Source: Phycisphaerae bacterium (GTDB taxonomy: Bacteria; Planctomycetota; Phycisphaerae; Phycisphaerales; SM1A02). From it: a DNA stretch of 64,000 nucleotides. The stretch is taken from the NCBI GenBank assembly GCA_016795065.1, contig JAEUIU010000002.1, positions 124,001 through 188,000 on the forward strand, given 5' to 3'. Under the pieces are notes generated by a model. The model did no database searches, had not been told where the DNA came from, and saw nothing but the letters and a program-made list of their open reading frames with translations. The position numbers were made by a program, and so were the translations under genes. Positions within the stretch are counted from its first letter, which is position 1; each line of letters starts with the position of its first letter. Below are positions 50,900-56,764 of the stretch, piece after piece.

Positions 50900-51277
50900 T
50901 CACGATTCGTCGTCATCCTGGGAGCCATCGCTCCGGCCGGACGCACCGCCCTCGGCGGATCGTTCGAGGTCCGCCAGCGACAGGCGACGGATCTCCTGTT
51001 CAGCGGTGTCGAGAATGCCCTGGCAACGGCGAAGGAGCGCCCGACCACGGCGATACTCATCGAGCGTCTCTTCGAGACCGATCTCGCCATGCTCGACCCG
51101 TTCGATGATCGACTCGAGCCGTTCGAGGGCATCTTCGTACTTGAGGGCGGCGACCTCGCGATCGAGCGGGTCGTCCTTCGGGTCCAGAGGCGTGGCGGGC
51201 GAAGAACCTCGCCCTGCCGCGGAGCTGCGTGACCGCTTGCGCTTCTCGCTCTGCCCGGATTCCTCGTCGGAACTCAT
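50900..51277 (-). CDS. xseB: Exodeoxyribonuclease VII small subunit
   Basis: 125 residues. The family core KYEDALERLESIIERVEHGEIGLEETLDEYRRGRALLRRCQGILDTAEQEI (about 46-96) is a pair of helices that bundle around the large subunit. Disordered Ser/Arg-rich and acidic extensions flank it, making it longer than the usual 70-80 residues. It starts 9 bp after xseA, clearly in one operon. Confidence 0.93.
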   Translation of the reverse strand: MSSDEESGQSEKRKRSRSSAAGRGSSPATPLDPKDDPLDREVAALKYEDALERLESIIERVEHGEIGLEETLDEYRRGRALLRRCQGILDTAEQEIRRLSLADLERSAEGGASGRSDGSQDDDES

Positions 51278-51286
51278 CGCCGCACT

Positions 51287-52828
51287 CTACTGCGCTTCGC
51301 CGAAGAGGTCGAATGTCCCAGAGCCGGCTGCGGGACCGCGTCCCTTCGGGCTCGACACACCTGTCGGGCGACTCGGTCGAGCCGGCAATGCCCCGTGTTC
51401 TTCCACGCGCGAACGCACGGTGCCATCCACAAGTCTGGTTTCGAGCAAGGTTCCGGTCGGCGCGTCGGCGACGTGGCGCACCAATCGCCCGTCCGTGGTC
51501 ATCGTGTAGGAGTACCCCCGGGCAAGCACCCGCTCAGGCGCGACCGCCTCGAGTTGGCGGCGCATCGATTCGGTCCGCTCGGCCGCCCGACGGAGCCGTT
51601 CGAACGCCGCCCGCTCCAGTCGGCGGGCCTGGTCGGCCAGGTCCTGCCGGGCGCGTGCCATGGTGAGCGCCGGTCGAAGGCTCTCCAACATCGTGCGGCC
51701 CCGCTCGAGGGCGCCTCGTCCAACCACTACACGCGACTGAGTCGCCCGTACCAGGCGCTGCCTGACCTCCTCAAGGCGGCGGCGGCGTTCCACCAGCGGC
51801 GCCAGCGGCGAGCGCAGGAAGGCATGCCGGGCCGTGCGGGCCAACAGCTCGCGCCGTTCACGCACTGAGCGGCGAAGCGAACTCACCAGGCGATCAGCAA
51901 GCGACTCGACCTGTTCGGCAAGCTCTGCCCGATCAGGAGTCAAAAGCATCATCGCCTGGGTCGGCGTCGACGCCCGACGGTCCGCGACCAGTTCCACGAT
52001 GGTCGTGTCCGACTCGTGACCGATGGCCGCGACGATCGGAACGCGTCGACGGGCGAAGACGGCATCGGCGACCTCGCGTTCGTTGAAGGCCCAGAGGTCC
52101 TCGATCGAACCGCCGCCGCGGGTGACGAGGATCGCGTCGATACCCAATGCTGCCGCGTGCCTGTCTAGGAGTGTCACCGCCCGGGCGACCTCCTTCGCCG
52201 ATCCGTCGCCCTGCACGCGGACGTCGACCAATACCAGCCCCACCGCAGGACAGCGATGGGCGGCGGTGCGCAGGCAATCGTGGATCGCCGCACCGGTCGC
52301 GCTGGTGACAATCGCCACGCGGCGCGGGAAACTCGGCAGCGGCCGCTTGCGGGATTCCTCGAAGTAGCCAAGGCCACGCAGCTCGCGGCAGAGGGCTTCG
52401 TAGCGCTCTTGCAGCGACCCGACGCCCACACGTTCGATCGATCGCACATAGAACTGGGCCCGCCCCTGCTTGGCGAAGAACGAGACGCTGCCGGTGGCGA
52501 CGACCGCATCGCCCTCTTTCGGCGTCCAGCCGACTCGTCGGGCCTGTTCCTGCCACATCGCACAACCGACCACGGCTCCCTCGTCCTTGAGCGAGAAGTA
52601 CCAATGCCCCTTGTCGAGGAAGTTCGAGATCTCGCCGCGCACGCGAATCGGGTCGCCCAGCGACTCCAGCGCACCCTTGATGCGGGCCGCCAACTGCGTG
52701 ACGGACTCGCTCGGCGGACCGTTCGCGGGGCGCGGCGGGTCGCCGCCCGTGCCATGTGCGCTCCCGCTGCCGCCCGCCCCGCCGAACAGGCGCATCGCAT
52801 CGCTGAAGCTCACCGTTCGTCGTGCCAC
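51287..52828 (-). CDS. xseA: Exodeoxyribonuclease VII large subunit
   Basis: 513 residues from GTG 52828. An N-terminal OB fold (IRVRGEISNFLDKGHWYFSLKDEGAVVGCAMW) precedes the catalytic core with the family motifs RVAIVTSATGAAIHDCL, GGGSIEDLWAFNEREVADAV and AAIGHESDTTIVELVADRRASTPTQA. A long C-terminal coiled coil follows. Exo VII degrades single-stranded DNA from both ends. The start is set by the 22-bp gap to divergent recG: a TATAGT box lies 7 nt upstream, with no ribosome-binding site. Confidence 0.95.
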   Translation of the reverse strand: MARRTVSFSDAMRLFGGAGGSGSAHGTGGDPPRPANGPPSESVTQLAARIKGALESLGDPIRVRGEISNFLDKGHWYFSLKDEGAVVGCAMWQEQARRVGWTPKEGDAVVATGSVSFFAKQGRAQFYVRSIERVGVGSLQERYEALCRELRGLGYFEESRKRPLPSFPRRVAIVTSATGAAIHDCLRTAAHRCPAVGLVLVDVRVQGDGSAKEVARAVTLLDRHAAALGIDAILVTRGGGSIEDLWAFNEREVADAVFARRRVPIVAAIGHESDTTIVELVADRRASTPTQAMMLLTPDRAELAEQVESLADRLVSSLRRSVRERRELLARTARHAFLRSPLAPLVERRRRLEEVRQRLVRATQSRVVVGRGALERGRTMLESLRPALTMARARQDLADQARRLERAAFERLRRAAERTESMRRQLEAVAPERVLARGYSYTMTTDGRLVRHVADAPTGTLLETRLVDGTVRSRVEEHGALPARPSRPTGVSSPKGRGPAAGSGTFDLFGEAQ

Positions 52829-52835
52829 GCGATCC

Positions 52836-52843
52836 ACTATATT
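52836..52843. promoter_or_regulatory. Overlapping bidirectional -10 boxes of xseA and recG
   Basis: The octamer ACTATATT supplies TATATT on the plus strand (52838-52843) and TATAGT on the minus strand (52841-52836). Each box ends exactly 7 nt before a GTG start (recG 52851, xseA 52828). Both transcripts would begin on or next to their start codons, and polymerases could not bind both ways at once. Confidence 0.65.
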
Positions 52844-52850
52844 CGCTTCC

Positions 52851-55004
52851 GTGGCCGAGGAACCGATCAGACTCTCCTCCGACGTCGGCACCCTGCCCGG
52901 CATCGGTCCGCGCTCGCGGCCGCACTTTGTGCATTTGGGCATCGCGACCGTCGGTGACCTCATCAAGCACCTGCCGCTTCGCTACGCCCGGCACTTGGAC
53001 GAGAGCTCGATCCGCGACGCCGACCAGCTCGTCCCCATGCAGGACGGTGCGAAGTCGCAAGGCGTCATCGCAGTGCGCGGAGAAATCGCGGCTTTGCGGG
53101 CGCCGCCCGGACCGCAGCGTGGCGGCCGCTCGCGGATCGAGGCGACGCTCGAGGACGACTCGGGCCGCGTGCGTTTGGTCTGGTTCAACGCCCCATGGCT
53201 CAAGCAGAAGCTCCATCCGGGCTCCCGCGGCCTGGCCCAAGGCGAGGCCAAGCGCTTCCACGGCTACTTGGAGATGATCAACCCCAAGTGGACGCCGCTT
53301 GAGGAGGACGAGGCCCCCTCGGCCGTCACCGCCGCGTTGCGGCCGGTCTATCCGGCGAGTGAGGACCTCTCGAGCCAGAAGATCGAGAAGGCCGTCGCGG
53401 CCATCCTCGACAGCGCCGTCCCCCTCATCGTCGACGCCCTTCCCGAGCCGATCCGCCACGCCCGCGGGCTCCTTCCGCTGGGCGAAAGCTATCGGCGAAT
53501 GCATCGACCGAGCTCCGAGGCGGAAGCGAAGGAAGCTCGCCATCGCCTTGCCTACGACGAACTCTTCCTCCTGCAGTTGGGGGTGATGCTGAAACGATGG
53601 CACCTGCGAACGACCGCCAGCGCCACGGCCCTGGCGATGTCCGCAACGATTGACGAACGCATTCGTCGACGACTCCCCTTCACGCTGACGCCCGACCAGA
53701 GTCGCGTCTGTGCGGAGATCGCGAAGGACCTGGGGCAAACGACGCCGATGAACCGCTTGCTGCAGGGCGACGTCGGCAGCGGCAAGACCGCGGTCGCGGC
53801 GTACGCGATGCTGACCGCCGCCGCCCACGGCGCCCAGGCCGCCCTGCTCGCCCCGACCGAGATCCTCGCCGAGCAGCACGTCACGAATCTCCGGGCCATG
53901 CTCGCATCGAGCGACGTGCGGATCGAGCTCTTCACCGGCGGACGCAAGACGAAGGAACGAGCCGCGGCGCTCGAACGGCTGGCAGCGGGCGAGGTGGACC
54001 TGGCGATCGGCACCCATGCGCTCCTCGCCGAGGGCGTGCACTTCAAGAACCTCGCCGTCGTCGTGATCGACGAGCAGCATCGCTTCGGCGTCGCCCAGCG
54101 AGCGGTGCTTCGCGAACGCTCCTCGCGCCGCGAGGGCGAGAAGGCCCAAAGTCCGCACGTCCTGGTCATGACGGCGACGCCCATCCCGCGCACGCTGGCC
54201 CTGACGGTCTTCGGCGATCTCGACGTCTCGACGATTCGCCACGGCCCGCCCGGCCGTTCGCCGGTGACCACGAAATGGGTGCCGCCGCAGGCCGCGGGCG
54301 AGGTCTACCGCTGGCTCGCCCCGAAACTCGCCGCGGGCGAACGTGCCTTCATCGTCGTGCCGGCGATTGATCCACAGGGCCCGGACACCGAGATGGTCCT
54401 GGCCGATGTGCAGACGCATCTGGAGATGCTCAGCCGCGGCCCGCTCGCCGGACACCGCCTCGCGGCGATGCATGGCCGACTGCCAGCCGCTGAGCGCGAT
54501 GAGGTCATGGGTCGCTTTCGACGGGGAGAGCTGGACGCGATCGTGGCCACCACCGTGATCGAGGTCGGCGTCGATGTCCCCGAAGCGACGGTCATGATCG
54601 TCGAGCACGCCGAGCGATTCGGCCTCGCCCAGCTTCACCAGTTGCGCGGCCGTGTCGGGCGCGGCTCGCAACCGGGCACGTGCATCCTGATCGGCGAGGC
54701 GGTCACCGACGAGGCCCAACGGCGGCTTCAGGCCCTCGTCGACACCACCGACGGTTTCCGTGTTGCCGAGATGGACCTTGAGATCCGCGGACCCGGCGAA
54801 TTGGTCGGGGCCCGCCAATCGGGCCTCCCGCCCTTCCGCGTGGCCGACCTGATGGCCGATCTGGACCTCCTCCGCCTCGCCCGCCAAGATGCATCGGAGC
54901 TGGTGGCGGGCGACCCGGCATTGACCCGGCCTGAACACCAACTCATCCGAAAGAAACTCCTGCACAGCTACGGCGAGGCCCTCGGCCTTGCGGATGTCGG
55001 CTGA
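52851..55004 (+). CDS. recG: ATP-dependent DNA helicase RecG
   Basis: 717 residues from GTG 52851. The N-terminal wedge/OB domain (about 1-250) carries LPGIGPRSRPHFVHLGIATVGDLIKHLPLRYA. Helicase motifs follow: NRLLQGDVGSGKT (Walker A), LLAPTEILAEQH, VVIDEQHRFGV (DEQH box), MTATPIPRTLALT and the C-terminal TVIEVGVDVPEATVMIVEHAERFGLAQLHQLRGRVGRG. RecG remodels stalled forks and branched DNA. polX follows 23 bp downstream on the same strand, forming a repair operon facing xseAB. Confidence 0.96.
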   Translation: MAEEPIRLSSDVGTLPGIGPRSRPHFVHLGIATVGDLIKHLPLRYARHLDESSIRDADQLVPMQDGAKSQGVIAVRGEIAALRAPPGPQRGGRSRIEATLEDDSGRVRLVWFNAPWLKQKLHPGSRGLAQGEAKRFHGYLEMINPKWTPLEEDEAPSAVTAALRPVYPASEDLSSQKIEKAVAAILDSAVPLIVDALPEPIRHARGLLPLGESYRRMHRPSSEAEAKEARHRLAYDELFLLQLGVMLKRWHLRTTASATALAMSATIDERIRRRLPFTLTPDQSRVCAEIAKDLGQTTPMNRLLQGDVGSGKTAVAAYAMLTAAAHGAQAALLAPTEILAEQHVTNLRAMLASSDVRIELFTGGRKTKERAAALERLAAGEVDLAIGTHALLAEGVHFKNLAVVVIDEQHRFGVAQRAVLRERSSRREGEKAQSPHVLVMTATPIPRTLALTVFGDLDVSTIRHGPPGRSPVTTKWVPPQAAGEVYRWLAPKLAAGERAFIVVPAIDPQGPDTEMVLADVQTHLEMLSRGPLAGHRLAAMHGRLPAAERDEVMGRFRRGELDAIVATTVIEVGVDVPEATVMIVEHAERFGLAQLHQLRGRVGRGSQPGTCILIGEAVTDEAQRRLQALVDTTDGFRVAEMDLEIRGPGELVGARQSGLPPFRVADLMADLDLLRLARQDASELVAGDPALTRPEHQLIRKKLLHSYGEALGLADVG

Positions 55005-55027: not shown

Positions 55028-56764
55028 ATGGCCAGCAACGCAGACCTGAGTGCCCTCTTCGAGGAATTCGCCTCGATCCTGGAGATCCTCGGGGCGAACA
55101 AGTTCAAGGTGATCGCGTTCCAGAAGGTCGCCCGCGCCCTGGACGCGATGGCCGACGACGCGGCAACGCTGGCCGCCACCAAGGGCGCTCTCGAGGCGAT
55201 CGAGGGAATCGGGGCGTCGAGCGCCGCAAAGATCCGCGAGTATGTCGAGACTGGCACGATCGCAGAGCTGGATGAGCTCCGCTTCCAGGTGCCGCCGGGG
55301 TTGCGCGAACTGTTAGGGATCTCCGGCATCGGACCGAAGACGATCTCCCTCCTCTGGAAGGAACGGGGCGTCACCGACAAGACCACGCTGAAGGCCAAGC
55401 TCGCCACAGGCGAACTCGCCGGCATCAAGGGGTTCGGCGAGAAGAAGCTGCAGAACATCGCCGAGGCCCTGACCCTCGCCGAACAGTCCGCGGGGCGCAT
55501 CCGCCTTGGAGCGGCCCTCCCGATCGCCGAGGCGGTCGTGGAGCGGATGGAGCGCGTTCCGGGTGTCCAGCGCGTCGCCTACGCCGGCAGCCTGCGCCGC
55601 GGCAAGGAGACGATCGGCGACGTCGACATCCTCTGCGCCTCGAGTGACCCGCCCTCGGCCCACGCGGTGTTTCGGTCGATGCCGGAGATCGTCAAGGTGC
55701 TCGTTTCGGGCGACACCAAGACGAGCGTCATCACGAGCCGCGGCGTGCAGATCGACCTGCGCACCCTACCGCTGGCCAGCTTCGGCGCAGCCCTCATGTA
55801 CTTCACCGGCAGCAAGGAACACAACGTCCGCCTGCGCGAACGGGCGATCTCGATGGGCTACCGCCTCAACGAGTACGGCCTCTTCGTCGACGACGGCAAG
55901 GAAGGCCCGCAGCACCGCGGGATTGAGCCGGTCGTCAGCGCGACTGAAGAGGAGGTCTTTGCGAAGCTCGGGCTTCCGTGGGTGCCCCCCGAGTTGCGCG
56001 AGGACCGGGGCGAACTCGCCCAGGCGATGCCGAAGCTCATCGAGCTCGGCGACCTCAAGGCCGAGCTCCACGCCCACACCCGGGCGAGCGACGGCTCGAT
56101 GACCATCGACGAGCTGATCCTCGCCGCCCAGGCGAAGGGCTTCCACACCGTCGCGATCACCGATCACTCGAAATCAAGCTTCCAGGCCAACGGCCTCTCC
56201 CCGGAGCGGCTGCGTGAGCACATCAAGGCCGTCCACGAGGCCGCGGCACGCCATCCCACCATGACCGTTCTCGCCGGCAGCGAGGTCGACATCCTCATCG
56301 ATGGGCGACTCGACTACGAGGACGAACTGTTAGGTAAGCTCGACATCGTCGTGGCCAGTCCGCACGCCTCGCTCCGACAGGAGACGGCGGTGGCCATGAA
56401 GCGATTGCTCAAGGCGATCGAGCATCCCTCGGTGCGAATCCTCGGCCACCCGAGCGGCCGGATCGTGAACGGACGAAGCGGACTCGATCTGGACGTCCGG
56501 GAGCTGGTGGCCGCCGCGAAGGAACACGACGTTGCCCTGGAGATCAACGCCAACCCGCTTCGGCTGGACCTCCGGGACAGCCACGTAAAGGCGGCGATGG
56601 AGGGCGGTGCGCTCCTGGCGATCAACTGCGACAGCCACGAGCGCGACAACCTCGACCTCGCCCGCTATGGCGTCCTGACCGGCCGGCGCGGATGGCTGAC
56701 CGCGGAGCGTTGCGTGAACACCTGGGACCGTGAGCGGCTCCGCCGCTGGCTCAAGCGAGGGTGA
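55028..56764 (+). CDS. polX: DNA polymerase/3'-5' exonuclease PolX
   Basis: 578 residues. Helix-hairpin-helix segments (LEAIEGIGASSAAKI, ELLGISGIGPKTI, IKGFGEKKLQNIAEA) precede the family X palm with AGSLRRGKETIGDVDIL (catalytic aspartates GDVD). The C-terminal PHP domain has metal motifs ELHAHTRASDGSM, VAITDHS, GSEVDI, VVASPHASL, LGHPSGR and NCDSHERDN. This pairing fills gaps and proofreads in bacterial base-excision repair. It contains two copies of the 12-mer CGAACTGTTAGG (55306 and 56323), each spelling Glu-Leu-Leu-Gly. Confidence 0.95.
   Translation: MASNADLSALFEEFASILEILGANKFKVIAFQKVARALDAMADDAATLAATKGALEAIEGIGASSAAKIREYVETGTIAELDELRFQVPPGLRELLGISGIGPKTISLLWKERGVTDKTTLKAKLATGELAGIKGFGEKKLQNIAEALTLAEQSAGRIRLGAALPIAEAVVERMERVPGVQRVAYAGSLRRGKETIGDVDILCASSDPPSAHAVFRSMPEIVKVLVSGDTKTSVITSRGVQIDLRTLPLASFGAALMYFTGSKEHNVRLRERAISMGYRLNEYGLFVDDGKEGPQHRGIEPVVSATEEEVFAKLGLPWVPPELREDRGELAQAMPKLIELGDLKAELHAHTRASDGSMTIDELILAAQAKGFHTVAITDHSKSSFQANGLSPERLREHIKAVHEAAARHPTMTVLAGSEVDILIDGRLDYEDELLGKLDIVVASPHASLRQETAVAMKRLLKAIEHPSVRILGHPSGRIVNGRSGLDLDVRELVAAAKEHDVALEINANPLRLDLRDSHVKAAMEGGALLAINCDSHERDNLDLARYGVLTGRRGWLTAERCVNTWDRERLRRWLKRG
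55306..55317 (+). repeat. 12-mer CGAACTGTTAGG, copy 4
   Basis: Inside polX, in the phase GAA CTG TTA GGG (ELLGI of a helix-hairpin-helix motif). Confidence 0.6.
56323..56334 (+). repeat. 12-mer CGAACTGTTAGG, copy 5
   Basis: Inside polX, about 1 kb after copy 4, phase GAA CTG TTA GGT (DELLGKLD). Confidence 0.6.

What the first reader, a model, noticed from the sequence alone, without database searches (positions are those of the whole stretch)
52829..52850. 22-bp divergent promoter with two overlapping -10 boxes, each 7 nt from a GTG start (xseA/recG)
ACTATATT gives TATATT toward recG and TATAGT toward xseA, with perfectly symmetric 7-nt spacing to the start codons. Both messages would be leaderless, and the shared box makes the two DNA-repair operons (xseAB and recG-polX) mutually exclusive in initiation. 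It is a very compact regulatory switch.
Basis: partly seen in the sequence, partly recalled or inferred. Interest (0 to 1): 0.65.

Follow-up and report, generated by a model that had tools for sequence, protein, structure and literature searches.

The report
Shared promoter for two leaderless genes
Two DNA-repair genes that point away from each other (xseA and recG) appear to start from one tiny, nearly symmetric promoter, so that each message probably begins at its own start codon; the layout is real and kept in many related Phycisphaerales (Planctomycetota) bacteria, but nothing shows that it works as a switch.

Summary
The gap at 52829-52850 (22 nt) holds TATATT (toward recG) and TATAGT (toward xseA), each 7 nt from a GTG. 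N-termini of relatives support both GTGs. Divergent xseA/recG is conserved in almost the whole family (order Phycisphaerales, inferred). Of 131 genomes, 111 have TANNNT 5-9 nt before an xseA start (66 at 6 nt, 29 at 7 nt; background about 2 per spacing). In 96 of those 111 a forward TANNNT overlaps the xseA box, against 5 of 49 other leaderless-type boxes (31 of 41 genera against 5/49, p=2e-10). In one genus (17 genomes) the gap is 17-19 nt around TATCGTA; with a 17-nt gap the start codons lie 18 bp apart, the commonest spacing of bidirectional promoters. The double pattern is absent from 750 kb of control sequence. Best reading: a conserved bidirectional promoter with a shared -10, leaderless for xseA across the family and for recG in a subset that includes this genome. 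The 'mutually exclusive switch' is not supported: published tests of such promoters in E. coli find no competition at basal activity. All is inferred from sequence; no transcript was mapped.

The parts
52829..52850 (.). 22-nt gap between the divergent start codons of xseA and recG (GCGATCCACTATATTCGCTTCC)
52838..52843 (+). predicted -10 box TATATT for recG, 7 nt before its GTG
   Evidence: recG spacing peak at 6-7 nt in relatives
52836..52841 (-). predicted -10 box TATAGT for xseA, 7 nt before its GTG; overlaps the recG box by 4 bp
   Evidence: xseA spacing peak at 6-7 nt in relatives
52851..55004 (+). recG, start GTG 52851, predicted leaderless
   Evidence: Pfam RecG wedge, DEAD, Helicase_C; N-terminus matches relatives
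51287..52828 (-). xseA (exonuclease VII large subunit), start GTG 52828, predicted leaderless
   Evidence: Pfam Exonuc_VII_L; N-terminus matches relatives
50900..51277 (-). xseB (exonuclease VII small subunit), 9 nt downstream of xseA, probable operon
   Evidence: coordinates; Pfam Exonuc_VII_S
55028..56764 (+). polX-type DNA polymerase with PHP domain, 23 nt downstream of recG, probable operon
   Evidence: coordinates; Pfam DNA_pol_B_thumb, HHH_8, PHP

Best explanation
The 22-nt gap is a bidirectional sigma70-type promoter. Near-symmetry of the -10 motif (A at -11 and T at -7 recurring on both strands) lets RNA polymerase load in either direction on the same few base pairs. Transcription probably starts at or within one base of each GTG, so both mRNAs are leaderless and are translated without a Shine-Dalgarno sequence. 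Each polymerase covers the other gene's first codons, so the two loading events exclude each other in time; at ordinary promoter strength this should place the two repair operons under common control rather than switch between them. Shown: geometry, conservation of gene order, spacing peaks, excess of symmetric boxes. Inferred: that the boxes are used, the exact start sites, leaderless translation, and the benefit of co-expression.
For: Geometry. Both starts fit the N-termini of relatives. xseA: TANNNT at spacing 6 in 66 and at 7 in 29 of 131 genomes, about 2 at other spacings; recG: 15 and 18 against about 3. Among 93 genomes whose XseA N-terminus is recognisable, 76 have the box 6-12 nt upstream, 42 of them at 6 only. 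An overlapping forward box is present in 96 of 111 leaderless-type xseA genes, almost always by 5 or 2 bp, against 5 of 49 other leaderless-type boxes; by genus 31/41, Fisher p=2e-10. Genus g54: TATCGTA shared, gap 17-19, xseA box 6 nt and recG box 6-8 nt from the start; with a 17-nt gap the starts are 18 bp apart, the preferred distance of bidirectional start sites (PMC10268837; PMC12825309). Four g61-type genomes: ATCGTACGAT, gap 22-23, matching the 23-bp class. Leaderless-type spacing is also a genome-wide signal: 19 and 9 candidates at spacings 6 and 7 against about 2; the profile is similar in relatives.
Against: No transcript was mapped. The window's own register (4-bp overlap) is the only one of its kind among 111. 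The sister species keeps the box for xseA, but its recG starts 26 nt beyond TATAAA. recG has a leader of 10 nt or more in many relatives with an overlapping forward box, so recG leaderlessness is not a family trait. No conserved -35 was found. TANNNT is a loose motif, and the two common overlap registers each need only one extra A or T, so part of the overlaps could arise by composition (about 30% by my rough arithmetic at 34% A+T); the control boxes show about 10%.
Confidence: 0.72

Rival explanations
1. Only xseA uses this box (leaderless). recG is transcribed from elsewhere, for example from inside xseA, and its TATATT is a by-product of the symmetric motif.
For: The xseA signal is much stronger and more widespread than the recG signal; recG starts at variable distances from the box in relatives and 26 nt away in the sister species.
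Against: recG has its own spacing peak at 6-7 nt; in genus g54 and parts of g61, g36, g14, g11, g21 and g18 the forward box sits 6-9 nt from the recG start; symmetric boxes are far more common here than at other leaderless genes.
Confidence: 0.15
2. One reading: the shared box makes xseAB and recG-polX alternatives, so that expressing one shuts off the other.
For: Overlapping boxes cannot bind two opposing polymerases at once (stated in PMC12825309).
Against: Weakening one direction did not raise the other at five tested E. coli bidirectional promoters; competition appeared only after strong activation. No conserved -35 was seen for xseA.
Confidence: 0.06
3. The symmetric sequence is mainly an operator (palindrome) for a repressor of both genes, and its likeness to -10 boxes is secondary.
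For: The sequence is a near-palindrome in many genomes, e.g. ATCGTACGAT and TATCGTA.
Against: The core changes between genera (TATCAT, TACGAT, TATCGT, TACTAT, TATAGT) while the TA...T positions and the 6-7 nt distance to xseA persist, as expected of a -10 and not of one operator.
Confidence: 0.05

Closest known systems
Prokaryotic bidirectional promoters with a shared, near-symmetric -10 (Grainger group; PMC12825309, PMC10268837)
   Same: Overlapping -10 boxes on opposite strands; predicted start sites about 18 or 23 bp apart in relatives, 21-23 bp here; two mRNAs of functionally related genes.
   Different: Both messages appear leaderless, so the start codons themselves are the predicted start sites; conserved across a family with drifting box sequence; start sites not measured.
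Leaderless bacterial genes with a -10 box about 7 nt before the start codon (e.g. the leaderless transcriptome of M. tuberculosis, PMC3898074, seen by title and abstract only; survey PMC5397173)
   Same: TANNNT 6-7 nt from ATG/GTG, no Shine-Dalgarno, many genes in the genome.
   Different: Here two leaderless genes share one box; occurrence in this Planctomycetota family is inferred from sequence.

Membership tests
Bidirectional promoter (shared -10) | -10 elements on opposite strands overlap | tested here: met
   4-bp overlap at 52838-52841; overlap in 96 of 111 relatives with a leaderless-type xseA
Bidirectional promoter (shared -10) | divergent start sites typically 10, 18 or 23 bp apart | tested here: inconclusive
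   Predicted 21-23 bp here, 18-20 bp in genus g54, 23-24 bp in four g61-type genomes; start sites not measured
Bidirectional promoter (shared -10) | RNA is made in both directions | not testable with these tools
   needs start-site mapping or in vitro transcription
Leaderless gene | -10 box 6-7 nt before the start codon, conserved | tested here: met
   xseA: spacing peak, 66 genomes at 6 and 29 at 7 of 131. recG: smaller peak, 15 and 18 genomes, and not met in the sister species
Leaderless gene | no Shine-Dalgarno before the start | tested here: met
   none of GGAG/GAGG/AGGA/GGGA before recG in the 27 leaderless-class genomes including this one; none before xseA GTG 52828 by eye
Leaderless gene | transcript 5' end at the start codon | not testable with these tools
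   no expression data
Mutually exclusive transcription switch | activity in one direction lowers the other at natural strength | not testable with these tools
   literature on five E. coli cases finds no such effect at basal level

The most novel reading that the evidence does not exclude
A family-wide conserved bidirectional promoter in which both start codons are the transcription start sites, so that in the tightest form (17-nt gap, genus g54) each gene's start codon lies at position -18 of the other gene's promoter, and start codon, start site and promoter of two genes are fused into about 23 bp under joint selection.
Probability: 0.5. Interest if true: 0.65.

Novelty: new variant of a known kind. 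Interest (0 to 1): 0.5.

Why it matters
It joins two known but separately studied features, symmetric bidirectional promoters and leaderless mRNAs, in a conserved, evolving series. With many species showing 2-, 4- or 5-bp overlaps, leaderless or leadered recG, and in some cases split boxes, the locus would let one test how bidirectional promoters arise and split, and whether co-expression of two repair functions (exonuclease VII and RecG) is what is selected. It also suggests that leaderless initiation is common in this poorly studied group.

Tried and rejected
A named-genome scan with the RecG protein found nothing; the scan with an alignment found only more distant named Phycisphaerae and others, and the one of these with XseA nearby (L195) holds only its C-terminal half. 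I tested whether leadered recG genes carry a Shine-Dalgarno instead: only 9 of 63 do, so that idea was dropped. An alternative xseA start at GTG 52837-52835 with GGAAG upstream was rejected because the N-terminal length matches the sister species from GTG 52828 and the similar upstream GTG is out of frame there. No conserved -35 was found for xseA. Of 27 divergent pairs listed in this genome's sample none shares a leaderless box (that caller did not list the xseA/recG pair itself because its ORFs overlap).

Full report
What is there. The 22 nt between the two start codons read GCGATCCACTATATTCGCTTCC. On the + strand TATATT (52838-52843) ends 7 nt before GTG 52851, the start of recG. On the - strand TATAGT (52841-52836) ends 7 nt before GTG 52828, the start of xseA. 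The two hexamers share 4 bp. xseA is followed 9 nt later by xseB, and recG 23 nt later by a family X polymerase with PHP domain.

Are the starts right? Neither ORF has an in-frame stop just upstream, so this had to be tested. The sister species (G001, RecG 65% identical) has an xseA N-terminus of the same length (VVEKKRTFVDAM against VARRTVSFSDAM) and a recG N-terminus one residue shorter. G038 recG begins MAEEPIQL against VAEEPIRL here, and XseA of many relatives begins M/V-x-R-x-PFDP, in line with VARR here. Both GTGs are therefore well supported.

Chance. The double pattern occurs once in the window, at this place, and 0 times in 750 kb of other sequence from this genome and 20 relatives.

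Comparison. RecG was found in 61 of 61 genomes searched in the order, and XseA in 165 of 181 of the family at E <= 1e-20. Divergent adjacency holds in nearly all of the family examined; the genomes of other families of the order lack it except G038. The collection's names point to Phycisphaerales, phylum Planctomycetota (nearest named records are Phycisphaera, Phycisphaeraceae and Phycisphaerales MAGs); the family name was not available.

xseA is leaderless by conserved geometry. For all in-frame ATG/GTG candidates in 131 genomes, TANNNT falls at spacing 6 in 66 genomes and at spacing 7 in 29, against about 2 at other spacings. The hexamers vary: TATCAT, TACGAT, TATCGT, TACCAT, TACTAT. recG shows a smaller peak, 15 and 18 genomes at 6 and 7 against about 3.

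The box is symmetric far beyond the control. Of 111 genomes with a leaderless-type xseA, 96 have a forward TANNNT overlapping its box, by 5 bp, by 2 bp or by both, and once, here, by 4 bp. At 49 other leaderless-type boxes in this genome and relatives, 5 do. By genus it is 31 of 41 against 5 of 49 (Fisher p=2e-10; relatedness between genera is not corrected for). The two common registers are those that the symmetry of TA...T favours, and they give predicted start sites 18 and 23 bp apart, distances reported as common for bidirectional promoters (PMC10268837; PMC12825309). In genus g54 the whole promoter is TATCGTA in a 17-19-nt gap; where the gap is 17 nt the first bases of the two start codons lie exactly 18 bp apart.

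How this genome differs. Its register (4-bp overlap, 21-23 bp between predicted starts) is unique in the set, and its sister species keeps xseA's box but has recG 26 nt beyond TATAAA. So the shared box looks old, while recG leaderlessness comes and goes: 27 genomes are leaderless from the shared box, and in 63 with an overlapping box the nearest recG start lies further away, only 9 of them with a Shine-Dalgarno-like motif. In the outgroup G038 the two boxes are 45 bp apart.

Genome background. TANNNT at 6-7 nt before candidate starts is enriched genome-wide: 19 and 9 candidates against about 2 per spacing, among 199 ORFs. Published work already lists Planctomycetes among phyla with few Shine-Dalgarno genes and a leaderless/S1-type bias, from one species (PMC5397173).

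Mechanism. The simplest account is a bidirectional -10 promoter that serves two leaderless genes. The claim of a switch is not supported: steric exclusion is expected, but the basal bidirectional promoters tested in E. coli do not compete. Joint expression of two repair operons is the likelier benefit; that is inference.

Limits. No transcript evidence; a loose motif; simple ORF calling for controls; related genomes are not independent. I found no paper in the held library that describes a bidirectional bacterial promoter with both messages leaderless (judged from titles and abstracts), but that library is partial.

Noticed in passing
L118, L119, L122, L123, L127, L128, L129 (genus g61): In these genomes xseA (MKRPPFDP) has no TANNNT at leaderless distance; several keep CGTACGATAC further upstream, followed by an A/G-rich leader. 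The same genus also has leaderless members, so the initiation mode seems to have changed within it.
   Followed up: partly
L053 (G004): About 740 bp lie between xseA and recG and encode a small protein that looks, by eye and unsearched, like a carboxymuconolactone decarboxylase/AhpD-type protein.
   Followed up: no
L173-L192 and window (this genome), L273-L292 (relatives): Leaderless-type -10 boxes 6-7 nt before start codons appear common genome-wide in this family, with only weak Shine-Dalgarno enrichment.
   Followed up: partly
L183:5335 (-) and L183:5407 (+): Another divergent pair in this genome in which both genes have a leaderless-type box (TAGACT, TACACT), with 71 nt between the starts and boxes not shared.
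   Followed up: no
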